A DNA stretch of 50,870 bases from Ruminococcus sp. (GTDB lineage Bacteria > Bacillota > Clostridia > Oscillospirales > Ruminococcaceae). This document shows positions 11,749 to 24,034 of the stretch, piece by piece. A model generated the notes under the pieces. That model had not been told where the DNA came from and ran no database searches. It saw only the letters and a program-made list of their open reading frames with translations. Made by a program: the position numbers and the translations under genes. How positions within the stretch are numbered: position 1 is the stretch's first letter; every line of letters starts with the position of its first letter. The DNA is taken from contig JAJBSV010000007.1 of assembly GCA_020861185.1 (NCBI GenBank), forward strand, positions 116,093-166,962, written 5' to 3'.

Positions 11749-12673
11749 TGTGTGCCCCTCCTATAATATCGCTTAAGTTGTCGATTCCGTACTTGTCCAT
11801 AGCCGCAGGAAGGTCTTCGATGATCTTCTTGCAAATCATCGGGTCGACGAGGTTCATCGCCCCTACTCCGACAGCCGTAGCACCGGCAAGCATCATCTCG
11901 ATGACGTTGTCAGCGCTCGCAACTCCGCCGATTCCGACAATCGGGATGTTCACAGCGTCGTAGCACTGATATACCAACCTCAAAGCTATCGGGTAAGTAG
12001 CCGGTCCCGAATAGCCGCCCATCTTGTTGGCGATAATCGGCTTCTTGGTTCTTAGGTCTATTCTCATTCCGAAGAGGCAGTTTATAAGGCTCAAGCCGTC
12101 CGCTCCGCCCTCTTCGCAAGCCTTTGCAATCGGGACGATATCGGTGACGTTCGGTGTGAGCTTCGCGATAATCGGCTTATTTGTGATTTCACGGACAGCC
12201 TTTATAGTCTCATAGGACGCCTTCGGGTCGGTGCCGATGCTCATGCCGCCGCAGGAGATGTTCGGGCAACTGATGTTGACCTCGAACCAGCCTATCATAT
12301 CGCTCATTTCGGATTTGTCAAGCTTTTCAATCGCTCTGACGTAGTCGTCAAGGCAGAAGCCGCTGACGTTCGCCATGACCTTCTTGTGGAAGCACTTTCT
12401 GAGCTTCGGGAGCTCTTCGGAAATTACCTTGTCCACGCCCGGGTTCTGGAGCCCGATTGAGTTGACTATTCCCGAGGTGGTCTCGGCAATTCTCGGCGTC
12501 GGGTTGCCGAATCTTTCTTCTATTGTCGTGCCCTTGAACGAGAATGTTCCGAGCATGTTTATATCGTATAGCTCTGCGAACTCCCAGCCATAGCCAAAGG
12601 TTCCGCTTGTCGGGATAACTGGGTTGTCAAGCTCGATTCCGCAGAGTGTCGTTTTTAATCTATTATCAGCCAT
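11741..12673 (-). CDS. pyrD: dihydroorotate dehydrogenase, class 1B catalytic subunit
   Basis: Oxidises dihydroorotate to orotate with FMN, passing electrons to PyrK and NAD. 310 residues from the ATG at 12673, which overlaps the pyrK stop (TGATG); an upstream extension to 12772 only reads through pyrK. Motifs: [24 protein letters not shown] (cysteine as catalytic base, as in class 1), [23 protein letters not shown] and [23 protein letters not shown]. Confidence 0.96.
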
Positions 12674-13413
12674 CACATTTCCTCCCAGATGATTTCTTCG
12701 CTCGAAAGAACGGGTCCTTCGCGGCAGATTCTCTTGAAGCCGTTCCTCGTCTTGCAGGAGCAACCCATGCACGCTCCGAAGCCACAGCCCATTCTCTGCT
12801 CAAAGCTGTATTCGCCCTCGGACTTCATGATTCCCGCCATAGCCTTCAGCATCGCCATCGGTCCGCAGGCATAGAAATATGAGTAATCAAGATTCGGAAT
12901 CACATCCGTGACCATTCCCTTTTCGCCCTTCGAGCCGTCCTCGGTGACGACAACGACGTTCGCACCAAGAGCCTCAAATTCCTCTTCATAGAAGACTTCA
13001 TCGGAAGTCTTGAATCCCAGCACTACGGTCGGCTTCTTGCCCTCGGCTACAAGCTTTTTGCAGAGGCTATACATCGGTGGCAAGCCGACTCCCCCGCCGA
13101 CAAGAAGCGGAGTCTCGCCGCTCTTCGAGAAGTCAAAGCCGTTGCCGAGCCCAACGAGAATATCAAGCTCGTAACCCTCGGGAAGGGTCGACATGAATTC
13201 CGTCCCGTTTCCGACGGTCTTGTAAATCAGGGTCATGGTGCTGTCGTCATAGTCGCAGACAGAGATGGGTCTACGAAGATAGAACCCCTCGAGCCTGATA
13301 TTGACGAACTGCCCGCAGTTTCTGATGCCGCTCACGTCGCCGCCGAGAATCATGCGGTATGTCCCCTTGGCAATCTTTTCGTTTTCGAGAATTTTGTAGA
13401 TGTTGTCGGTCAT
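12673..13413 (-). CDS. pyrK: dihydroorotate dehydrogenase electron-transfer subunit
   Basis: FAD and [2Fe-2S] protein that passes electrons from PyrD to NAD. 246 residues: flavin motif YLRRPISVCDYD, nucleotide motif LLVGGGVGLPPMYSLCKKL, and cluster cysteines C210, C215, C218 and C230 (C-x4-C-x2-C-x11-C, as in Bacillus PyrK). It is four bases from the pyrC stop and overlaps pyrD. Confidence 0.96.
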   Translation of the reverse strand: MTDNIYKILENEKIAKGTYRMILGGDVSGIRNCGQFVNIRLEGFYLRRPISVCDYDDSTMTLIYKTVGNGTEFMSTLPEGYELDILVGLGNGFDFSKSGETPLLVGGGVGLPPMYSLCKKLVAEGKKPTVVLGFKTSDEVFYEEEFEALGANVVVVTEDGSKGEKGMVTDVIPNLDYSYFYACGPMAMLKAMAGIMKSEGEYSFEQRMGCGFGACMGCSCKTRNGFKRICREGPVLSSEEIIWEEM

Positions 13414-13417
13414 ATTT

Positions 13418-14722
13418 TTATCCTTTCGTACTATTGTGTATAGGATCTGATGTAGGGGCGGATATCATCCGCCCGTTATGGGCACCTGCGAAGGGTTCGG
13501 GCGGATAATATCCGCCCCTACAAATTTCGCATCTCCCAAACACGTTCATACCCGCAAACGGCGTAGCCCTGCCCATTGTTTTGAATTCGTCGGGGTTTAC
13601 AGTGTAGGGCGTTGCAATCTCAAACACCGCAAAGCCGGGGTCTTCATTGATTCCGAATCTCTTGCGGGGATTTATTGACATCAGCTCGACGAGTTTCTCA
13701 AGCGTGATGATGCCCTTCTTCACGAGCTCGGTATAGAGAATCGGGAAAGCCGTTTCGAGCCCGACTATTCCCATGGCGCTCTTTTCGAGCCCACGCCCAC
13801 GGGATTTTTCTTCGAGGGAATGCGGCGCGTGGTCGGTAGCTATCATGTCGATGGTGCCGTCTAAGATGCCCTCTATCAGTGTCTCTTGGTCTGCTTTTGA
13901 CCTGAGAGGCGGGTTCATCTTGAAGCGTCCGTCCTCCTCGAGATCTTCGTCGCATAGGACAAGATAATGCGGTCCCGTCTCACAGCTTATGTCGACTCCT
14001 CGCTTCTTGGCGTCACGAATCAGGGCGACGCTTTCTTTTGTCGATATATGACAGACGTGATACTTGGCGCCCGTCTTCTCGGCAAGGGCTATATCCCGCT
14101 CAATCTGCTTATATTCGCTCTCACTCGAGATGCCCCTATGGTTGTAAAGACGGCAATATTCGCCGTCATGTATGTAGCCGCCGTTAAGAAGAGAGTTGTC
14201 CTCACAGTGGGCGGCGATTATCTTGCCGAGAGATTTCGCCTTCAACATAGCCTCTTCCATCATGTCAGATTCTTGCACTCCGTGCCCGTCGTCCGAAAAG
14301 GCGCAGACATAGGGGCTCATCGAATCCATATCCGAAAGCTCTTTCCCAAGCTCGCCAACCGTAATAGCACCGTAGGGAATCACTCGCACTGCGGCGTCCT
14401 TCTCTATAATATCAAGCTGAGCCCGAAGATTATCGAGGCTGTCGGGGACCGGATTCAGGTTCGGCATGGTGCAGACGGTCGTATATCCCCCGTTTTTCGC
14501 CGCAAGGGAGCCGGAGCAAATTGTTTCTTTATATGAAAAGCCCGGCTCTCTGAAATGCACATGCACATCACAAAGACCCGGGACGATTATATAGTTTTCA
14601 GGAAAAGACGACACAGAGTCGGGCATAAAGCCGCAGGAACACAGATACTCCTCGGCAAAAAGGCGCTCTTTCGCGTTAAGGTAGACAGACTTTATTCCAA
14701 CTGCCCCTAAAGAAGCTTCCAT
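13418..14722 (-). CDS. pyrC: dihydroorotase with a repeat-encoded C-terminus
   Basis: Cyclises carbamoyl aspartate to dihydroorotate; zinc amidohydrolase. 434 residues. DVHVHFREPGFSYKE and TDHAPHSLEEKSRG are the metal and substrate motifs; HC near 170 and CHIST near 220 fit the other ligands. The usual end (TPFAGWxVxGxVxxTIVxG) stops at TPFAGMNVFGRCEI; the last 30 or so residues are read through the repeat at 13451-13522 (GGYYPPEPFAGAHNGRM) to a chance stop. GGAGGAG lies eight bases before the ATG. First gene of the pyr-pur array, with its own promoter. Confidence 0.94.
   Translation of the reverse strand: MEASLGAVGIKSVYLNAKERLFAEEYLCSCGFMPDSVSSFPENYIIVPGLCDVHVHFREPGFSYKETICSGSLAAKNGGYTTVCTMPNLNPVPDSLDNLRAQLDIIEKDAAVRVIPYGAITVGELGKELSDMDSMSPYVCAFSDDGHGVQESDMMEEAMLKAKSLGKIIAAHCEDNSLLNGGYIHDGEYCRLYNHRGISSESEYKQIERDIALAEKTGAKYHVCHISTKESVALIRDAKKRGVDISCETGPHYLVLCDEDLEEDGRFKMNPPLRSKADQETLIEGILDGTIDMIATDHAPHSLEEKSRGRGLEKSAMGIVGLETAFPILYTELVKKGIITLEKLVELMSINPRKRFGINEDPGFAVFEIATPYTVNPDEFKTMGRATPFAGMNVFGRCEICRGGYYPPEPFAGAHNGRMISAPTSDPIHNSTKG
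13451..13522. repeat. TGTAGGGG/CCCCTACA palindromic repeat, copy 3, inside the pyrC frame
   Basis: 72 bp: TGTAGGGGCGGATATCATCC, then a variable middle, then GGGTTCGGGCGGATAATATC and CCGCCCCTACA. It is wholly inside the open frame of pyrC and encodes roughly residues 401-424. Confidence 0.9.
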
Positions 14723-14757
14723 AACGCCGACTCCTCCTCAATCCGAAAGTTACTTCA

Positions 14758-14786
14758 AGTATAACAGATTGTAAGACGAAAGTCAA
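14758..14786 (-). promoter_or_regulatory. promoter of pyrC and the pyr-pur array
   Basis: On the minus strand TTGACT (14786-14781), a 17-base spacer and TATACT (14763-14758). Transcription would start near 14751, leaving only about 28 bases of leader before the pyrC ATG: no room for a PyrR attenuator or purine riboswitch. The repeat copy 4 ends just upstream of the -35. Confidence 0.75.
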
Positions 14787-14787
14787 G

Positions 14788-14849
14788 TGTAGGGACGCCT
14801 GTTGTAGTGCCGAATTTTGTGTTTCGGGCGGATGATATCCGCCCCTACA
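14788..14849. repeat. TGTAGGG/CCCCTACA palindromic repeat, copy 4
   Basis: 62 bp, left end degenerate (TGTAGGGACGCCTG) and right end intact (TCGGGCGGATGATATCCGCC then CCTACA). It lies between the stop of the second M14 gene (two bases away) and the pyrC promoter -35 (one base away). Confidence 0.85.
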
Positions 14850-14851
14850 AG

Positions 14852-15772
14852 TCACGCTTTAATAATTTTGTACAAAACCGCCTCAGCGAATACCAATGGG
14901 CGATTATATCTGAAGAACACGATGCCGTCTGTGGGGGCGGTGATTCGTTCGACAACGTTGCCCTCGAGCGGATCGAGGATTTCGCAGAGGAGTTGTCCTC
15001 TCTCGAAGCTGTCCCCCGTTTCCGCATAGGGGCGATCACCTTGGTCGAGTGGAGCTGGATGAGCTCCGATTCGGAGATAATCTCGGTCAGGCTTCCTCCC
15101 GGGATTTTCTGCGTCGTGATGCCGTTCTTATTGGCGAACCGAAGCACCGCGTCAATCGCAATCTTCGCCGACGGCAGGTCAATCTGGTCTGTCGCGTTGG
15201 TGTAGAGCGAGAACGCCTTGGTTTCCCATATCTGCCAGTTGTAGTTGAGCGTTGTGGTGTCGTAAGGTCTCGGCGTTCTTATGAAAGCATACGGCAGTCC
15301 GAAGTCGGTCATATAGCCGTGGTCGGTAAACCCGGTCTCCATCAGCTTGACGTGCGAGAGGAAGTCGCCCTGCTGATAGAAGCTTGCGAACTGGATTCCG
15401 AATTTATACCCCTGAATCTCCTCGAAGAGCCCGTCGGCGATGCGTTGGGTCGTTTCGCCCATGTCGTAGCCGGGGAACATGCGGTTGATGTCGGTGTTGT
15501 CCATCGTCCAGAACCGCTTGCCGATGTTCATCGAATAGTAGTTGACGCAAGGGATGATTAAAATCTCGTGATTCGGGGCGATTTTGCCCTCTTTTTTCGA
15601 GGCGCTTGAACTTCTGGACAAGCTGAGATGCGACGTACATCTGCTGTACTTCGTTTCCTCGCATAGAGCCGACGATGCAGAGCGCCTTCTCGCCGCCTCC
15701 GAAGCGATAGCCGACGATGTCCATCGGTTCACGATATGGGGATGTTATCGAATAGATTGTCTCTTTACGCAT
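14852..15772 (-). pseudogene. degenerate M14-type (AstE/aspartoacylase-like) protein with two frameshifts
   Basis: Start ATG 15772 (MRKETIYSITSPYREPMD) overlaps the upstream M14 gene by eight bases (ATGCGTAA). The frame reads VGSMRGNEVQQMYVASQL, breaks at a run of six A (plus-strand T6 at 15592-15597; five A would restore the frame), continues as GKIAPNHEILIIPCVNYYSM through TDINRMFPGYDMGETTQRIA, then breaks again near 15025-15032 before YAETGDSFERGQLLCEILDP and ends at TGA 14852. Against its neighbour, the HxxE histidine is Arg, the second histidine is Ala (IQFASF) and the catalytic Glu is missing, so it looks catalytically dead even if the frame is repaired. The breaks may be assembly errors. 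Confidence 0.75.
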
Positions 15773-16709
15773 TGTGAACACCTCCCAAAATTCTTGCAAT
15801 AAGCGAGCCGCCGTAAACGACGGGATATTCGCGGAGAGTAAAGATTCGCCCGTCGCAGGGAGATGTGACGTATTCCTCGACATGCCCGGTTGTCGGGTCA
15901 AGGACGTCGCCGATATGGTCGCCCTTCTTTATATCTACCCAGTGCTCAACGCACGGCAGGAAGATTCCGGCGGCGGAGGAGTTGACAAAAGAAACCTCAT
16001 GGTCGGTCGAGAGGATAGACTTGCGGACCGGCTCGGTCTCGCCTGTCCAGATGCCGATGTTCTTAAGTAAATTCAGGATTCCCGCAACAAGCTGGTCGCA
16101 GTATTCCTTCGTTATTCTCATTCCGACGCCCATCTCGACAACGAGGGTTTTCGTGCCGATTGAGTTTAAGCTGTAGGCAAGCGTCGATTCGAGGACGGTC
16201 GCCGAGCTGTGAACCCAGATGAAATCTGTCCCGAGCATTTCGGCATAGGGCACGAGCTCGTCGGCGGTGATTTCATTAATACGCACCTGCGGGATTTCAC
16301 GGAGATAAATATTACTTGCGTGGATATCGATGCAGATGTCTGCGCCCTTGATGTCGTTCACGATGTCATAGGCGATATGCTCCGCCATGGTGCCGTCGGG
16401 GGTGCCGGGGAAGATTCTGTTCATGTCGAGGTCAAACATCGGCATGCCTCTCTGAATGGAGTCGACGCCGAGGGGGTTCAGCGCCGGATAAATATCGACG
16501 ATGCCCTCAAGGTTGGATGCGCCTTTTGTCAATATGTCCGCAAGTCTGGCGCAGACAAGCTGACCCTCCAGCTCGTCGCCGTGGGTTCCCGTGACAATAC
16601 AAGCACGCTTCTTTCTTTTCGTGGAGCGTGCCATATTCGAAATTCGGTTTTTGCGGATGACAAGGTTTTCATTAACCGCAAGCGAAGCTTGGGCGATGGT
16701 TTCTATCAT
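15765..16709 (-). CDS. M14 zinc peptidase/deacylase, succinylglutamate desuccinylase/aspartoacylase type
   Basis: 314 residues. Zinc motif GTHGDELEG gives H43 and E46, the third ligand is H130 in CIDIHASN, and VEMG (E192) fits the general base; R98 in DMNRIFPG fits the substrate arginine. The C-terminal third (AGIFLPCVEHWVDIKKGD to the end) is the beta-barrel half usual in this family. Expected to hydrolyse an amide or C-terminal peptide bond on a small acidic substrate; the substrate is unknown. It follows the transglutaminase by 15 bases and overlaps the degenerate paralogue, in a unit with ATP-grasp and alpha-E genes. Confidence 0.88.
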   Translation of the reverse strand: MIETIAQASLAVNENLVIRKNRISNMARSTKRKKRACIVTGTHGDELEGQLVCARLADILTKGASNLEGIVDIYPALNPLGVDSIQRGMPMFDLDMNRIFPGTPDGTMAEHIAYDIVNDIKGADICIDIHASNIYLREIPQVRINEITADELVPYAEMLGTDFIWVHSSATVLESTLAYSLNSIGTKTLVVEMGVGMRITKEYCDQLVAGILNLLKNIGIWTGETEPVRKSILSTDHEVSFVNSSAAGIFLPCVEHWVDIKKGDHIGDVLDPTTGHVEEYVTSPCDGRIFTLREYPVVYGGSLIARILGGVHNA

Positions 16710-16724
16710 AGGTTGTTTTCCCTT

Positions 16725-17498
16725 CTACTGTACTATTTGTGATTTCACCGTCTGCGTGCTCTCAGTTATCCCCACATAGCACCCCGATTCAATCGGGCAG
16801 TCGGCGTAGTCTCTGCCGTGGTAGAGTTTGAGGTAGTGGGTGCTGATGAGGCAGTTGTTGACGGGGTCAAGCCCGTACCAGCGGGAGCCGTCGTTGACCT
16901 CGACCCATGCGTGGGTTTCGCCCTCGTCGCAGGCGAGCCCGGCGACATACCTGCACGGGATTCCTCCCATGCGGCAGAGCGCAAGCATGATGTGGGCATA
17001 ATCCTGACAAACGCCTTTTCCGAGAGTTAAGGCTTCTTCTGCCGTTGTATGCACATCGGTGACGCCTTTCTCATAAGTCATGTATTCATAAAGGCTGTCC
17101 GCCAAAGCGAGCGCTCTGTACAAGACGTTCGATTCGGTCGGCTGATGCGCTTCGTAAAATGCAGTCAAAGCCTCCCCGGGATGCGTCAGAGGCGACTGAT
17201 AGGCATACATGACGGGAGCCTTGCCGGAAACGGTATAGCTCGAGGTGATGGACGCAGTGCCCTTGACGGAGAAAGCGAACTTGTCGTGCGGCTTTTCGAT
17301 TCTGCCGCAGAGGAGCGAGTTGCCGAAGCTGTCGCGCGAATTCCAGATAACCCCGCCGACAGGCTGAATAGTATATTTCGGCTCGCTTATAATCTGCCGG
17401 TCGTCCGAAAGCGGCAGGCACCGGAGCGTGAAGCAGTGGGCGCTTATCGGGCTTGCGAAATCAAACTCGGTGCTGTATTCAAATGTCAGCTTCTTCAT
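16725..17498 (-). CDS. transglutaminase-like cysteine protease (COG1305 type)
   Basis: 257 residues, no signal peptide, so cytoplasmic. An N-terminal beta domain (1-110) with SAHCFTLRCLP precedes the papain-like core: C164 in GKGVCQDYAHI, H196 in GETHAWVEV, D211 in YGLDPVNN. This domain order is the one found next to alpha-E and circularly permuted ATP-grasp genes. The start overlaps the alpha-E gene by 20 bases, with GAGGT in that gene as ribosome site. More likely a peptidase than a cross-linker. Confidence 0.92.
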   Translation of the reverse strand: MKKLTFEYSTEFDFASPISAHCFTLRCLPLSDDRQIISEPKYTIQPVGGVIWNSRDSFGNSLLCGRIEKPHDKFAFSVKGTASITSSYTVSGKAPVMYAYQSPLTHPGEALTAFYEAHQPTESNVLYRALALADSLYEYMTYEKGVTDVHTTAEEALTLGKGVCQDYAHIMLALCRMGGIPCRYVAGLACDEGETHAWVEVNDGSRWYGLDPVNNCLISTHYLKLYHGRDYADCPIESGCYVGITESTQTVKSQIVQ

Positions 17499-18192
17499 CA
17501 GTTTTTACCTCAACAAGTCTCGAAATGAGCGACAGTGCCTCGAGCCGACAGCTCTCGATTCCCTTTCCTCGGGTCAACAGCTTCTCAAGGCTCTCGTATG
17601 CCTCGACATTCAGAACATGATTATAGACGTTTTCATAGGGATGAACCAAGCCGGTGAGATAGTCAAACACTCTGCGGATATCTTCATCTTTATAGGAAAG
17701 CCGGACGAACAGGTCAAGCCTCTCGACCGCCTTGCCGATATAAATCAGATCTCGTCCCTCGAGGTCCTCCATATTGTCCTCGACACTTCCCCAGAAGGCG
17801 TATAAATCGTCTCTTACTGGGAGCAGATCATAGCGCACTTTGCGGGTTCCCCTGACGGATTTAAACTTATTGAGAGCAAGCTGTAAGTATGAAAGCGAAG
17901 AAGACTTGATAGCTTCTCTGAGAACGATTCCGTTGTCCATAGCCCGCTCGAGATTCGAGCGGAGGGAGTTCGGGTCGGTCTTGTCGAAAAGATACCTGTC
18001 GAAAAAGTCGTTGTCGTCGGTGTAGATGTTCGGCGCACCGATTTTTTCAAGATAGCTCTTGTATGATTCCTTATCGACATCTATCATCAGGTCGAAATAA
18101 TTGAAGAACGAATTAAGGGTTGTGAAGACACGCTCGGTGTATCTCCCGAGCCAATATAAATTGGAACCGTTTAGTCTTGTGATAGTACCCAT
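17479..18192 (-). CDS. alpha-E domain protein (DUF403)
   Basis: 237 residues, all helical in look, starting GTITRLNGSNLYWLGRYTER: the NLYWLGRYxER opening is the hallmark of the alpha-E family. Shorter than the usual 300 or so. Function unknown; the family nearly always accompanies circularly permuted ATP-grasp and transglutaminase proteins and was proposed in comparative genomics (Iyer and co-workers, amidoligase/ATP-grasp survey) to work in peptide synthesis. It overlaps the ATP-grasp gene by 22 bases and the transglutaminase by 20. Confidence 0.92.
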   Translation of the reverse strand: MGTITRLNGSNLYWLGRYTERVFTTLNSFFNYFDLMIDVDKESYKSYLEKIGAPNIYTDDNDFFDRYLFDKTDPNSLRSNLERAMDNGIVLREAIKSSSLSYLQLALNKFKSVRGTRKVRYDLLPVRDDLYAFWGSVEDNMEDLEGRDLIYIGKAVERLDLFVRLSYKDEDIRRVFDYLTGLVHPYENVYNHVLNVEAYESLEKLLTRGKGIESCRLEALSLISRLVEVKTDEEADI

Positions 18193-19499
18193 GTGTCTTT
18201 AAAGCCTCCTCCTTGAGATGAATTTACGACGAACGAATCGGGATTGCGCGAGAATTGGGTCAAGCCGCTCGCCCAGACCTTGGTGGTCTCGCCCGAAAGC
18301 ACAAAAGCACGCAAGTCGGCTTTACGGGGAACCGTCGTGCCGTCGTCGCTGAGAATATCCAGATCGATAAAGTCGATTACTTCCTGAGCAATGAATCTGC
18401 GGGATTGCTCTGTAATCAGCGTCCGCCAGTCGGCGAGCTGTTCTTTCGTCATATCTCTTCCGAACACTACTCCGTAGCCTCCGGCTTCTGAGACATCTTT
18501 GACAACCAGAGTCTCAAGATGGTCAAGGACGTACTTTCTGTCCTCCTCGTAATACGGGAGATATGTAGGTGCGTTCTTTAAAATCGGCTCCTCGCCGAGG
18601 TAGTACTTAATCATCTTCGGGACGAAGTAGTAGATGCCCTTGTCGTCCGCAACGCCGTTGCCGGGTGCATTCATGATGGCGACGTTTCCGGCTCTGTAGG
18701 CGTCCATGATGTGCGGCGCGCCGATTAAGGATTCCGGCACGAAGGTCATCGGGTCGAGGTATTCGTCGGAAATTCTTCTGTAGACCGTGCCGACACGGGT
18801 TCTGCCGCCCTGATAGTCACGCATGTATAGAATATTGTTCTCGACAAAGAGGTCGCTGTTCTGAACTAATACTGCACCGGTTCTCTCCGCCAGATAAGAG
18901 TGCTCGAAGTAGGCGGCGTTATAGCGTCCGGGGGTGAGAATAACGTTGATGCCGCCGCAGTTGACGCTGTCCATCGTGTCCTTCAGGAGCGAGGCGTAAT
19001 TTCTGTTATCGACTACGGACACATCGTGAAATACATCCGGACTGGTCATTCTACACAATTCTCTCGCAATCAGCGGATACGAAGCACCCGACGGAATGCG
19101 CAAATTGTCCTCAAGTATGTACCAAGTCCCATCCTTGGCTTGCACCAAATCAATACCGGAAATATGGCTGTAGACGCCGTGAGCGGGAGTCACGCCCTCG
19201 CACTGCGGCAGATAGCCCTTTGATATGTAGACAAAGTCTGCAGGGATTACTCCGTCTTTTATTATTTTCTTCTCCGAATAGATATCTTTCAGGAAGAGGT
19301 TCAGAGCGTCGACACGTTGGATAAGTCCCTTCTCCATGTCAGAAAAGTCGGACTTTGTAATGATTCTGGGGATGGCGTCGAACGGGAAAAGCTGCTCCTT
19401 GAAGACGCCGTTTTTATAGATTCCGAACTTGACGCCGTATCTGGCAAGAAGCTCGTTTATCTCACGGGTGTTGGCAACGGGTGTGTTCATAGCATTCAT
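18171..19499 (-). CDS. circularly permuted type 2 ATP-grasp protein
   Basis: About 442 residues. VYSHISGIDLVQAKDGTWYI followed by LEDNLRIPSGASYPLIAREL is the characteristic DUF404/407 stretch; later VVKDVSEAGGYGVVFGRDM and FIAQEVIDFIDLDIL are the permuted ATP-binding part. Expected to make a peptide-like amide bond with ATP. Start is ATG 19499 or 19490; neither has a strong ribosome site, and the longer frame to 19571 runs through a hairpin and upstream of the predicted start of transcription. First gene of the five-gene unit. Confidence 0.92.
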   Translation of the reverse strand: MNAMNTPVANTREINELLARYGVKFGIYKNGVFKEQLFPFDAIPRIITKSDFSDMEKGLIQRVDALNLFLKDIYSEKKIIKDGVIPADFVYISKGYLPQCEGVTPAHGVYSHISGIDLVQAKDGTWYILEDNLRIPSGASYPLIARELCRMTSPDVFHDVSVVDNRNYASLLKDTMDSVNCGGINVILTPGRYNAAYFEHSYLAERTGAVLVQNSDLFVENNILYMRDYQGGRTRVGTVYRRISDEYLDPMTFVPESLIGAPHIMDAYRAGNVAIMNAPGNGVADDKGIYYFVPKMIKYYLGEEPILKNAPTYLPYYEEDRKYVLDHLETLVVKDVSEAGGYGVVFGRDMTKEQLADWRTLITEQSRRFIAQEVIDFIDLDILSDDGTTVPRKADLRAFVLSGETTKVWASGLTQFSRNPDSFVVNSSQGGGFKDTWVLSQD

Positions 19500-19515
19500 C
19501 TCAATTCTAAAAAAT

Positions 19516-19549
19516 GCAAAAAGACGCCCAAGAAACCTTGGACGTCTTT
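19516..19549 (-). terminator. terminator-like hairpin in the leader of the ATP-grasp unit
   Basis: On the minus strand AAAGACGtCCAAG-gttt-CTTGGgCGTCTTTTTG followed by CATTTTTT. It lies after the activase stop and only about 20 bases before the ATP-grasp ATG, downstream of the predicted promoter, so it may both end the activase transcript and weaken or control the ATP-grasp one. Confidence 0.7.
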
Positions 19550-19561
19550 GCCACTGTATTA

Positions 19562-19590
19562 AGAATAACACACTAAAGCTAAAATTTCAA
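19562..19590 (-). promoter_or_regulatory. promoter of the ATP-grasp/alpha-E/M14 unit
   Basis: Minus strand TTGAAA (19590-19585), 17 bases, TATTCT (19567-19562) with an extended -10 (TGT before it). Predicted start near 19555, so the hairpin at 19516-19549 would be the first structure in the RNA. Confidence 0.6.
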
Positions 19591-19627
19591 CGGTGAATTT
19601 TGGACAAAGATTTGCGGGAGAAATGCT

Positions 19628-22600
19628 TTACCCATTGTTCATTATTAACATCTGCAACCGATTCTCCACATTCGCAAGGCTCGTGTCGGGGTCGAGGTCG
19701 AGCGGGAGGATGGAGATGTCGGGGTGCTTGTCCTTCAGGCTCTTGATGACTCCCCTGCCGCAGATGTGGTTCGGGAGGCAGCCGAAGGGCTGGAGGATTA
19801 TGAACGACTTCACGCCCTTTTCGGCGTAGTGGTCAATCTCCGCCGCCATCAGCCAGCCTTCGCCACAGCTGAGGGTCTTCGGGATGATGTCGCTTACCGA
19901 ATCATAGAGCTTATTGGGCGAGAGGACTTTTTCATAGAGCGGATGCTTCACGGCGACCTTCTCGAGCTTATCCTGAACATAGTTGAAGAGGAAGTCGACG
20001 GCGAACGGATAGGGGAAGATGTTCGCCCCGAAGTCGCTTATCTCGCTCATCGTGGCGAGGAAGTCCTTTCTTAACTGGTCGGTGACCCTCGGGAAGACGG
20101 CTTCCATGCCGTTCGACTCGAGATACCGCTCAATATGGAAGTTCGAGCCGGGGTGATATGTAACGAGTAGCTCGCCGGTGACGAATACTCTCGGCTTAAG
20201 GTTCGTCCTGTCATAGGGAATCTTCGCCATGTCGTCGATGGTCTCGGAGAAGGCTTTTCGTGCCTCTTTGATGCTCTTTTTGATGCCATCCGCAAGCTTA
20301 TTGATGCAAGCCATATAGACCCTGTCCGTCTCGCCGGGATTGATCTCATAGGGGCGAATCTTTCTTGCGATGTCTGTTAAGATATCCATCATCTCGAACA
20401 CCCAGACGGCTTCGAGGACTGCGCTTACACCGAGTAGGAACACTCCCGGGTGCATGTCTTTTGAATCTCCACCGTCGGTTGTGAGAATCGGCACTTCGGT
20501 GAAGCCTGCGCTGTCGAGTCCTTTTCTTAGGAGCCCGGCATAGTGGGACATACGGCAATCGCACTGGAACTTGACCATGCCGACTGCGACCTCGTCCTGC
20601 TTATAGTTGCCCTTTTGCAATTCACCTATCAGTTCACCGATTACCATCTGGCAGGGGAAGCAGATGTCATTGTGGACATACTTTTTGCCGAGGGCGATTT
20701 CGTTCGGTCCGCCAATGGGGATGGTCTTGACCATGAAGCCTTCTTTTTCGCAGATTGCTTGGAGCAAAATCGAGACCTCTTCGGATATATTGGGGATTAG
20801 AAGCGTGCGGATTTTCTTGTCTTTTTTATAGAACTTCGCGGGGCTCGGTTCGGGGAGCGGCTTCGGCGGGTTGTCAAGCCCCAGATTCCTGCGGATTTCG
20901 ACCGTCTCGATGAAGGACTGCACTCTGATGCCGAGTGAGCCCGAGGCGTCGCTCTCGTCAATCTTCAAAATCAGCGGCGGCTTGTCGCTCGTGGTGGTCA
21001 TGATTCGGATTATTTCGTCCGAGAGGATCGCGTCGTGCCCGCAACCGAAGCTGACGAGCTGAACATATTCGAGCTCCGGCTCCCGGGCGGCGATGACCGC
21101 CGAAGCGAGCATACGGGTGTGGAAGTCGTTGGTGATTTCGGCACGGGTGTTGTGCAGGTCGACTTCGTTTAGTCCCGGCAGGCTGTCAGCAGTGAGAACC
21201 GCTACGCCCTTCTCGGTGAACTTCTTCGAGATGTCATGGCTTATGAATCTGTCGGTGTGGTAGGGTCTGCCCGCCAGAACGACGGCGAACTTGCCCTCAC
21301 GCTTGACATCTTCGATAATTTCTGTCGCCCTGTCGGTAAGCGTCTTTCTGAAGAGCTTTATCGCCGATTCAGCCTGAGTGAAAGCCTGCTCGGCTTCTTT
21401 TTCTGAAGCTCCGAGCTCCTTGACGGCGTACTCGCAAATCTGCGTGTGGCGGTTCTTCTCCGAGAACCAGTGGAAAATCGACGTGTCGAACACTACGCCG
21501 TAGCGCTCTGCGGGGTTCTGCGAATTCTTCACGACCATCGGATATCCCTGAACGACCGAGCAGACGTATGGGCTCTGCTTATCGACGCCTTCCGGCGGCA
21601 TGTGCATGACATATGGCATGAAAATCCGGTCTGCGCCCTTGCCGGCGAGGTCGGCGATGTGCCCGTGGGCAAGCTTCGCCGGGAAGCAGATTGTGTCGGA
21701 AGCGACGAACGAGATGCCGCTTTCGTACATTCCCCTCGAGCTCGGCGAGGAGAATCTGACCTTATAGCCGAGAGCCTTGAAGAAGGTGCTCCAGAAGGGC
21801 ATGCTGTCCCAAAATTCGAGGACTCTCGGGAGCCCGACGGTGATGTCCTTTTCTCCGCAGACGGGCGTGCAATCATAATCTTTGAATAAGAGCTTTTCGC
21901 GCTCTATGTATAAATCGGGCGCCTTCTTCGGCTTCTCGAGGGGCTCCGAGCCTTCGAGCTCTGCGCCGCGCTCGCAACGATTGCCAGTTACCCAAGCCCT
22001 GCCTGATGAAAATCTCGTAATAGTGCGCTTGCAGTGATTGGCGCAATGCGGGCAGGCTACGCCAGTCTCGGTGGTGTAATCGAAGCTTCTGACGGCATCA
22101 AGACCGATAAACTTCGTCTTGCCTTTCATCTTTCTTCTTGTGAGAATAGCCGCGCCGACGGCTCCCATCTCGCCGGGATAGGGCGAAAGGGTGACGGACT
22201 TCCCGAGGTAATCCTCAAGTGCCTTGAGAACCGCAAAGTTGCGGAAAGTGCCGCCCTGAACGACAACTCGGCTTCCGAGCTCGTCGGTGTTCGAGATTCG
22301 GACAACTTTTGTAAATACATTTTCTATAATCGACCGGCAGAGCCCCGCCATGATGTCGTCGGGGAGCTTGCCGTTGCGCTGTTCGTTGATGATGGTGCTG
22401 TTCATGAAGACGGTGCACCGGCTCCCGAGGTGTGCGGGATGCTCCGAACGGAATGCCGACTCGGCGATGTCCTCAACTTTTATTCCCAAGGAGGAGGCAA
22501 AGTTCTCGAGGAACGACCCACAGCCGGACGAGCAAGCCTCGTTAAGGGTCATGTTCGTGATTACACCGTTCTTCATCCAGATAGCCTTCATGTCCTGACC

Positions 22601-23932
22601 GCCGATGTCAAGAAGGAAATCGGTGTCGGGGAAGTACTTGAGGCACCCCTGCGAGTGGGCGACCGTCTCGACGATATGATAATCGGCATTGAACGCGCTT
22701 GCAAAGAGCTGTTCGCCGTAGCCGGTGGTGCCGACGCCTAAGATTTCGAGCCTGATTCCCCGCTCGGCGTATTTGTCCTCGAGGTCGCTTAAGCCCTTGC
22801 AGATGACCCGGAGCGGCTCGCCGCTGTTGTTCGAGTAGAACCGGTCGACAATCCGTTCGTGCTCGTCCATCAGGACAAGCTTCGAGGTGGTGCTTCCCGA
22901 GTCGATGCCGATGTAGACCCGGAGAACTCCGTTCTCGGTTATCGGCTCCTCTAACTCCCGAAGTTCCGTCATGTGCCTGGCTTCAAACTCTTCCCTGTCG
23001 GCTTCACTCTTAAAGAACGGCGGTGCGGATTCACTGCCGTTTACATCGTCCTTAGCCGCTTCGAGTCTCGAAATAAGCTCGTCGGCGGTGTATGCTTCGT
23101 CTCCGGAAAGCCGCTCGGCGGCGATCGCCGTGCCGTAGGCGACGATGGTCTCCGGGTGCTCGGGGATTACTATATCCGATTCCGAAAGATTAAGCCTCTC
23201 GGCGAAAACTTTTATGAGCGTCGGGTTGAACGTAAGCGGTCCGCCCTCGAAGATTATCGGGGCTTTGAGCTCGAGCCCCTGCGAAAGCCCGCCGATGGTC
23301 TGCTTGGCGATGGCGTGGAAGCTTGATAGTGCGATGTCTTCCCTCTTTGCGCCCTGAATTAGAAGCGGCTGGATGTCGGCCTTGGCGAAAACTCCGCACC
23401 GCCCCGAGATGTCGAAAACGGTCGTGCCCTTTTCGGCAAGCGCTTCGAACTCCTCAGTCTTGACGCCCAGAAGCTTTGCAATCTCGTCGATGAATGCGCC
23501 CGTGCCGCCGGCACAGCTTCCGTTCATTCTCATATCGGAGGTCATGAGTTCACCGGTGTGCTCGTCCTTGTGGAAGAAGACGACCTTTGCGTCCTGACCG
23601 CCGAGCTCGATTGCCGTGCGGACGTCGGGATAGAGCTTCTTGACCGCCGCGGCGTTCGCAACGACCTCCTGTATAAACTGAATCCCCGCCGCCTCTGCGA
23701 CCGGCTTTCCTCCCGAGCCGCAAACGGCAGAGCGGAACTTTGTGCCCGGGAATCTTTCCGAGACTTCTCCTAACAGCCCGATAGCCGTCTCACGTTGCCT
23801 TGCATTATGTCTTAAATATCTTGAAAACAAAACCTCATCCGAATCGGGATTTTTCACGACGACCTTGACCGTCGTCGACCCGACATCGATGCCGAGAAGC
23901 AGAGCCTTCTCTTTTGAAACTGTATCTGTCAA
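19628..23932 (-). CDS. giant 2-hydroxyacyl-CoA dehydratase activase (BadF/HgdC family, fused)
   Basis: 1434 residues from TTG 23932, which has GGAGGAG five bases upstream; the longer frame (to 24016) runs through a terminator-like hairpin. Two ASKHA ATPase modules in tandem: GIDVGSTTVKVVV near 14 with cluster cysteines about 140 (GSCAGGTG) and 179 (GRCGVFAKAD), and GIDSGSTTSKLVL near 342 with cysteines about 467/471 and 506 (SRCTVFMNS). A cysteine-rich CPHCANHC stretch follows near 627, then the DUF2229 region (SMPFWSTFFKALGYKVRFSS) and a C-terminal dehydratase-like part with NDICFPCQMVIGEL. Such proteins are thought to pass electrons with ATP to a [4Fe-4S] enzyme; the partner is not in the window. 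Confidence 0.9.
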   Translation of the reverse strand: MTDTVSKEKALLLGIDVGSTTVKVVVKNPDSDEVLFSRYLRHNARQRETAIGLLGEVSERFPGTKFRSAVCGSGGKPVAEAAGIQFIQEVVANAAAVKKLYPDVRTAIELGGQDAKVVFFHKDEHTGELMTSDMRMNGSCAGGTGAFIDEIAKLLGVKTEEFEALAEKGTTVFDISGRCGVFAKADIQPLLIQGAKREDIALSSFHAIAKQTIGGLSQGLELKAPIIFEGGPLTFNPTLIKVFAERLNLSESDIVIPEHPETIVAYGTAIAAERLSGDEAYTADELISRLEAAKDDVNGSESAPPFFKSEADREEFEARHMTELRELEEPITENGVLRVYIGIDSGSTTSKLVLMDEHERIVDRFYSNNSGEPLRVICKGLSDLEDKYAERGIRLEILGVGTTGYGEQLFASAFNADYHIVETVAHSQGCLKYFPDTDFLLDIGGQDMKAIWMKNGVITNMTLNEACSSGCGSFLENFASSLGIKVEDIAESAFRSEHPAHLGSRCTVFMNSTIINEQRNGKLPDDIMAGLCRSIIENVFTKVVRISNTDELGSRVVVQGGTFRNFAVLKALEDYLGKSVTLSPYPGEMGAVGAAILTRRKMKGKTKFIGLDAVRSFDYTTETGVACPHCANHCKRTITRFSSGRAWVTGNRCERGAELEGSEPLEKPKKAPDLYIEREKLLFKDYDCTPVCGEKDITVGLPRVLEFWDSMPFWSTFFKALGYKVRFSSPSSRGMYESGISFVASDTICFPAKLAHGHIADLAGKGADRIFMPYVMHMPPEGVDKQSPYVCSVVQGYPMVVKNSQNPAERYGVVFDTSIFHWFSEKNRHTQICEYAVKELGASEKEAEQAFTQAESAIKLFRKTLTDRATEIIEDVKREGKFAVVLAGRPYHTDRFISHDISKKFTEKGVAVLTADSLPGLNEVDLHNTRAEITNDFHTRMLASAVIAAREPELEYVQLVSFGCGHDAILSDEIIRIMTTTSDKPPLILKIDESDASGSLGIRVQSFIETVEIRRNLGLDNPPKPLPEPSPAKFYKKDKKIRTLLIPNISEEVSILLQAICEKEGFMVKTIPIGGPNEIALGKKYVHNDICFPCQMVIGELIGELQKGNYKQDEVAVGMVKFQCDCRMSHYAGLLRKGLDSAGFTEVPILTTDGGDSKDMHPGVFLLGVSAVLEAVWVFEMMDILTDIARKIRPYEINPGETDRVYMACINKLADGIKKSIKEARKAFSETIDDMAKIPYDRTNLKPRVFVTGELLVTYHPGSNFHIERYLESNGMEAVFPRVTDQLRKDFLATMSEISDFGANIFPYPFAVDFLFNYVQDKLEKVAVKHPLYEKVLSPNKLYDSVSDIIPKTLSCGEGWLMAAEIDHYAEKGVKSFIILQPFGCLPNHICGRGVIKSLKDKHPDISILPLDLDPDTSLANVENRLQMLIMNNG

Positions 23933-23937
23933 CCTTA

Positions 23938-23993
23938 CTCCTCCAAAAAATGCCCCTTCGGGCAGTTGTCCGACACTTTCCAAATCAGTGTCG
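23938..23993 (-). promoter_or_regulatory. two-hairpin leader of the activase gene ending in a terminator beside the ribosome site
   Basis: Minus strand: CGACACT-gatttggaa-AGTGTCG (23993-23971), then TGCCC-gaag-GGGCA-TTTTTT (23964-23945), immediately followed by the ribosome site GGAGGAG (23944-23938) and TTG 23932. The intrinsic terminator touches the ribosome site, suggesting control of elongation or of translation. Confidence 0.6.
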
Positions 23994-24034
23994 TATAATT
24001 TAACCACAATCGACAAAATTCGATATTCAGAATT

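What the first reader, a model, noticed from the sequence alone, without database searches (positions are those of the whole stretch)
14852..19590. ATP-grasp / alpha-E / transglutaminase unit with an M14 pair in place of Anbu
Five overlapping or nearly touching genes share one promoter: circularly permuted ATP-grasp, alpha-E (DUF403), cytoplasmic transglutaminase, active M14 protein and degenerate M14 protein. From literature known to me, the first three families travel together and with the proteasome-like Anbu hydrolase, and were proposed to build and remove a peptide or amide product. Here no Ntn-hydrolase is present; AstE/aspartoacylase-type proteins fill the hydrolase slot. This suggests a Firmicutes version in which ATP-grasp makes a small amide-linked product and the M14 enzyme removes it. 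The product is unknown.
Basis: partly seen in the sequence, partly recalled or inferred. Interest (0 to 1): 0.82.

Follow-up and report, generated by a model that had tools for sequence, protein, structure and literature searches.

The report
Five-gene amide operon with M14 pair
A five-gene cluster common in gut Clostridia joins an amide-bond-making enzyme set, known elsewhere beside a proteasome-like hydrolase, to one intact-looking and one inactive-looking copy of a zinc amidase; it may serve to handle nitrogen held in amide-linked compounds.

Summary
The window holds, in order, a circularly permuted ATP-grasp ligase, alpha-E, transglutaminase and two AstE/AspA-type M14 proteins. The set is conserved: of the 80 best named loci fetched by ATP-grasp, 65 have enough contig, and 64 of 65 carry both M14 genes beside the ATP-grasp. 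In the window's genus, ATP-grasp and M14b occur in the same 10 of 31 genomes. No Anbu was found in 17 carriers. The second M14 looks like a conserved pseudoenzyme: 94 of 94 copies have Arg for the first zinc His, 0 of 94 keep the second zinc His or the catalytic Glu, all keep Asn-Arg. The window's own M14b is also frame-broken in two places; 9 of 9 genus relatives are intact. The M14 pair also occurs alone in 16 genomes, in 11 of them near a GABA transaminase and a PucR regulator. With NtrC control reported for a sister operon, I favour an amide-cycling nitrogen-salvage unit, though another paper reports steady expression. M14 holds Anbu's place; substrate and product are unknown. New variant of a known kind.

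The parts
18171..19571 (-). Circularly permuted type 2 ATP-grasp ligase (longest ORF, GTG; an ATG lies near 19499)
   Evidence: PF14403 1.2e-137, PF04174 6.5e-127; solved relative 3n6x, 8.1e-136 for alignment A1
17479..18192 (-). Alpha-E (DUF403) helical protein, short form (matches profile positions 7-164 of 294)
   Evidence: PF04168 1.5e-18; all-helical model of the R. albus homologue, pLDDT 88.3
16725..17498 (-). Transglutaminase-family protein with Bact_transglu_N
   Evidence: PF01841 4.5e-22, PF08379 3.6e-11; C164 79/79, H196 78/79, D211 78/79 in homologues
15765..16709 (-). M14a: AstE/AspA-type protein with complete zinc amidase residues
   Evidence: PF24827 1.7e-24; H43, E46, H130, E192 in 90/90 homologues
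14852..15772 (-). M14b: AstE/AspA-type pseudoenzyme; frame broken near 15,595 and near 15,035 in this copy
   Evidence: one open frame in 9 of 9 same-genus relatives that carry it
19520..19549 (-). Terminator-like hairpin between the upstream gene and the ATP-grasp (membership in the unit unsure)
   Evidence: count not above shuffles

Best explanation
A Clostridia/Negativicutes version of the ATP-grasp/alpha-E/transglutaminase amide-ligation system whose hydrolase is a pair of M14 proteins. Shown: the five genes are one conserved, co-inherited cassette; M14a has the complete zinc amidase residue set; M14b has the same fold (model) but lacks two of three zinc ligands and the catalytic Glu in every copy examined while keeping Asn-Arg; M14b was always found next to M14a. 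Inferred: M14a and M14b form a mixed complex in which M14b shapes or regulates the site. Inferred: ATP-grasp with alpha-E joins a carboxyl group (for instance of glutamate or a short acyl) to an amine through an amide, and the M14 pair hydrolyses that amide, or a similar one taken up from outside, to free an amino acid such as GABA or a diamine derivative. Inferred purpose: nitrogen salvage from amines and omega-amino acids, in the way of the gamma-glutamyl-putrescine and ectoine (DoeB) routes. The transglutaminase's step is not assigned.
Against: [quoted passage not shown] Full five-gene loci rarely have nitrogen genes nearby: GABA-transaminase-like in 2 of 90, ammonium transporter in 2 of 90, PotD in 1 of 90. 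The 11 stand-alone loci with GABA transaminase are one genus, so not independent; 5 of 16 lack it. No activity is shown for any member here; the Yersinia ATP-grasp released phosphate without stimulation by glutamate or glutamine. M14b is broken in the window, so the pair may not work in this strain. No M14a-M14b complex was modelled.
Confidence: 0.47

Rival explanations
1. Two modules that share an operon: ATP-grasp/alpha-E/transglutaminase does its own (peptide or tagging) chemistry, and the M14 pair is an independent amine-catabolic deacylase that joined it. M14 is not Anbu's substitute.
For: Pair stands alone in 16 genomes; three phylum genomes have the ligase set without M14 or Anbu; nitrogen genes flank the lone pair but rarely the five-gene set.
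Against: The ligase of this group is almost never without the pair: 7 of 7 in the class sample, 10 of 10 in the genus, 64 of 65 named loci. On the tree of pairs the stand-alone rows fall among five-gene rows (unrooted, quick, and one of six rows labelled stand-alone, L195, later proved probably five-gene).
Confidence: 0.27
2. A biosynthetic cluster: the ligase set makes an exported small peptide or amide, and the M14 pair trims a protecting acyl group before export.
For: A FUSC/ArAE-type membrane protein with a HAD domain flanks 12 to 13 of 90 five-gene loci (domains).
Against: No such exporter in most loci, and no sixth family of 130 aa or more is near-universal (shorter ORFs such as precursor peptides were not searched). 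Stand-alone pairs mostly sit in catabolic-looking settings.
Confidence: 0.15
3. Protein tagging: the ligase set attaches a peptide to proteins and the M14 pair removes it (the published proposal for Anbu, with M14 in Anbu's part).
For: Published proposal for the Anbu operon (passages).
Confidence: 0.11

Closest known systems
Anbu operon (ATP-grasp, alpha-E, transglutaminase, Anbu)
   Same: First three families and gene order identical, e.g. Limimaricola L244; the hydrolase follows the transglutaminase
   Different: No Anbu; two M14 proteins instead; the M14-linked ATP-grasps lie on one side of a long branch (3.07, support 100; quick tree, 10 other rows); alpha-E is shorter
DoeB / EutE N-acetyl-diaminobutyrate deacetylase (M14)
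   Same: Named function nearest to M14a among solved structures (2qj8 and 3cdx, of unknown function, score slightly better); in the tied top fold group for M14b
   Different: TIGR02994 score 68.7 against cut-off 402.7; here always found with an inactive-looking homologue
CphZ cyanophycin dipeptide hydrolase (M14) with CphA1 ATP-grasp
   Different: Ligase here is the circularly permuted type, not CphA1; no paired pseudoenzyme known to me
gamma-Glutamyl-putrescine (Puu) pathway
   Same: Logic of amide protection, hydrolysis and GABA transamination (recalled)
   Different: Different enzyme families (recalled)

Membership tests
Anbu operon | circularly permuted ATP-grasp | tested here: met
   PF14403 1.2e-137
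Anbu operon | alpha-E next to it | tested here: met
   PF04168 1.5e-18
Anbu operon | transglutaminase with catalytic triad | tested here: met
   C164 79/79, H196 78/79, D211 78/79; triad roles recalled
Anbu operon | Anbu Ntn-hydrolase | tested here: not met
   No PF00227 in G000; of 17 carriers 15 have none, one has a protein beside an HslU-like gene, one a sub-cut-off hit
M14 AstE/AspA amidases | M14a: zinc ligands His/Glu/His and catalytic Glu | tested here: met
   H43, E46, H130, E192 in 90 of 90; roles recalled
M14 AstE/AspA amidases | M14b: zinc ligands and catalytic Glu | tested here: not met
   R43 in 94/94, E46 kept, no H130, no E192
M14 AstE/AspA amidases | M14b: fold | tested here: met
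DoeB equivalog | curated score | tested here: not met
   68.7 against 402.7
DoeB equivalog | activity on N-acetyl-diaminobutyrate | not testable with these tools
   needs assay
CphZ | beta-Asp-Arg hydrolysis | not testable with these tools
   needs assay
Glutathionylspermidine synthase (name on 3n6x) | glutathionylspermidine ligation | not testable with these tools
   only a depositor's label

The most novel reading that the evidence does not exclude
An obligate active/dead M14 pair is a new kind of two-subunit amidase that took over Anbu's place in a widespread amide-ligation system; its stand-alone context reveals the substrate class of the whole Anbu-type system: amine or omega-amino-acid amides used for nitrogen salvage.
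Probability: 0.31. Interest if true: 0.8.

Novelty: new variant of a known kind. Interest (0 to 1): 0.64.

Why it matters
The papers read say that the Anbu operon's role has not been confirmed by experiment and that Anbu from Yersinia showed no peptidase or amidase activity. A version with a hydrolase family of known small-molecule chemistry in Anbu's place, whose hydrolase pair also occurs without the ligase near GABA-transaminase genes, gives a short list of testable substrates and points away from proteolysis towards nitrogen metabolism. The recurring active/dead M14 pairing is a clear target for structural work.

Tried and rejected
Anti-phage defence: no PADLOC match for ATP-grasp, alpha-E, transglutaminase, M14a or an intact M14b. 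RNA elements: no Rfam match at the gathering score in 13000-21000. M14b on plasmid records: none at 1e-10. M14a-M14b fusion: none among ORFs over 560 aa in the set. Programmed slippage rescuing M14b in the window: not supported, since the 9 genus relatives have one frame. Assembly error as the cause of the breaks cannot be settled without reads; alignments to L052, L021 and L109 show most other single-base gaps to be paired, compensating ones. A universal sixth gene of 130 aa or more: none; the largest flank families cover 23 (ABC ATPases), 13 and 8 of 90 loci. Rows set aside: weak PF14403 hits (44 bits or less: 16 of 23 matching genomes, 20 of 25, 10 of 11, where two just reach the curated cut-off on proteins of about 830 aa); weak M14b hits in 9 of 19 matching genomes. 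The PDB search for the alpha-E model could not be run: the queue was full each time. Iyer 2009 (PMC3268129) is not held; I saw nothing of it, so whether it already reports M14 neighbours is unknown to me. Paper searches listed none that I recognised as describing this association.

Full report
What is there. The five genes lie on the - strand at the stated place: ATP-grasp, alpha-E, transglutaminase, M14a, M14b. Junctions overlap or nearly touch. M14b starts at 15772 inside the end of M14a and its last stop is at 14852, but the frame is broken near 15,595 and near 15,035. In the 9 other genomes of the genus that carry the set, M14b is one open frame.

How conserved it is. In 60 relatives 11 have the ATP-grasp: 10 of 31 of the genus, own included, and one more of the order. 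The 10 new ones have the five genes side by side; in one, G024, the ATP-grasp is split between two frames. M14b searched separately in the 31 genus genomes is in the same 10 and in no other at 1e-20. In 291 class genomes 7 have a strong ATP-grasp hit (over 400 bits; 16 more have weak ones), and M14b is strong in 10, including those 7 (9 more weak). Of six new class loci, five have the full set in the same order; in the sixth (L049) the contig ends inside M14a and the pair is on another contig of that genome. Of the 80, 65 have at least 3.6 kb behind the ATP-grasp: 62 have the exact order by script, L092 has it too on inspection (its M14b frame extends upstream), L129 has the pair on the other strand just upstream, and L107 has none. 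Of the 15 shorter ones, 3 are complete, L131 has the pair on the other strand, and 11 are cut by the contig end. Named holders include Ruminococcus albus KH2T6, Faecalicatena contorta, Mediterraneibacter catenae and Anaerovibrio slackiae.

Anbu. No PF00227 match is in G000. Of 17 carriers, 15 have none; one has an HslV-size protein beside an HslU-like gene (recognised by eye), and one has a sub-cut-off hit. A Klebsiella Anbu as tblastn query found nothing but itself in the loci then held. Elsewhere the Anbu operon has the same order, with Anbu after the transglutaminase (Limimaricola; Klebsiella, alpha-E not listed there). Of four new strong hits in 249 phylum genomes, three (G367, G559, G511; Bacilli-like by my guess) carry ATP-grasp and transglutaminase, two of them with a weakly matching alpha-E, and neither M14 nor Anbu nearby; one (G586) has all five genes. 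On the ATP-grasp tree the 21 rows labelled five-gene plus L107 lie on one side of a branch of length 3.07 with support 100 (quick method). Three of those rows (L080, L124, L130) come from contigs cut before the M14 genes; two outside rows (L135, L244) were not picked up by the script, one (L243) is partial and one (L152) is very long.

The pair without the ligase. In 147 genomes of another order of the class, M14b occurs in 17. G635 and G650 have all five genes; G680 has the two halves at contig ends, so probably all five. The other 14 (G223 and 13 more of one genus), with G298 and G320, have the pair alone and no strong ATP-grasp in the genome: 16 stand-alone cases (weak hits of 32 bits or less in 10 of them, two just reaching the cut-off on proteins of about 830 aa). 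In 11 of 16 a GABA transaminase (TIGR00700 above cut-off in the three tested) lies within about 3 kb upstream, with a PucR-type regulator; a polar amino-acid binding protein is near 6, PotD near 2, a GltP-like symporter near 6. Among 90 five-gene loci these are rare (GABA transaminase 2, PotD 1, ammonium transporter 2), which speaks against my reading. On a tree of 56 pairs (thinned from 88) the label needs 2 changes and falls among five-gene rows. This fits loss of the ligase half, but the tree is unrooted and one of its six stand-alone rows, L195, is from G680, which I later judged probably five-gene; I did not rerun it.

Nitrogen. Passages read: in Burkholderia cenocepacia the DUF404/407, DUF403 and transglutaminase cluster I35_5080-83 is among common sigma54 and NtrC targets (PMC5491218). 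Anbu is called highly expressed under nitrogen starvation, and no peptidase or amidase activity was detected for Yersinia Anbu (PMC6376114). Against: PMC5666114 says the operon proteins are expressed constitutively, unchanged under various conditions. In Acidithiobacillus the Anbu set lies about 5 kb from ntrC and glnL, with a transposase between. In the Fibrobacteria bin L107 the ATP-grasp frame opens directly behind an ammonium transporter gene (start codon not determined). CphZ is the precedent for an AstE/AspA-type enzyme in the breakdown of an amide store (PMC10206079 passages). The Rlo system of Pseudomonas (PMC12239564 passages) is a looser parallel.

Verdict. 'In place of Anbu' is supported by position and by absence of Anbu in carriers, not by function. 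Most likely mechanism: amide formation by ATP-grasp/alpha-E and amide hydrolysis by an M14a/M14b heteromer, for nitrogen salvage. Shown: conservation, co-inheritance and the lost residues of M14b. Inferred: the ligation step, the complex, the substrate class and the purpose.

Noticed in passing
window 14852-15772: M14b frame broken in two places in this copy although 9 of 9 genus relatives that carry it are intact; recent decay or assembly error, reads needed
   Followed up: partly
L023 (G024), around 11893-12309: In one genus relative the ATP-grasp itself is split between two frames, so more than one strain shows a broken gene of this operon
   Followed up: no
L079:4771-6084 and 12 to 13 of 90 five-gene loci: A FUSC/ArAE-type membrane protein with a HAD domain flanks the operon; a RelA/SpoT-domain protein flanks 8 of 90
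   Followed up: partly
L107:8639-11416: Fibrobacteria bin with the same ATP-grasp group directly behind an ammonium transporter gene and without the other four genes; clusters with a Treponema bin, so gene transfer or misbinning
   Followed up: partly
L240 (Azospirillum plasmid record): An Anbu gene with no ATP-grasp among the listed neighbours, amid ABC transporters, an aspartate/glutamate racemase-family gene and hydroxyisourate hydrolase
   Followed up: no
window 19520-19549: 13-pair terminator-like hairpin just before the ATP-grasp start; end of the upstream gene's transcript or a leader element
   Followed up: no
window 19628-24016: 1462-residue BadF/BadG-DUF2229 activator-like protein upstream; beside the operon in the 9 genus relatives, and among 90 five-gene loci its flank family covers only 4
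   Followed up: partly
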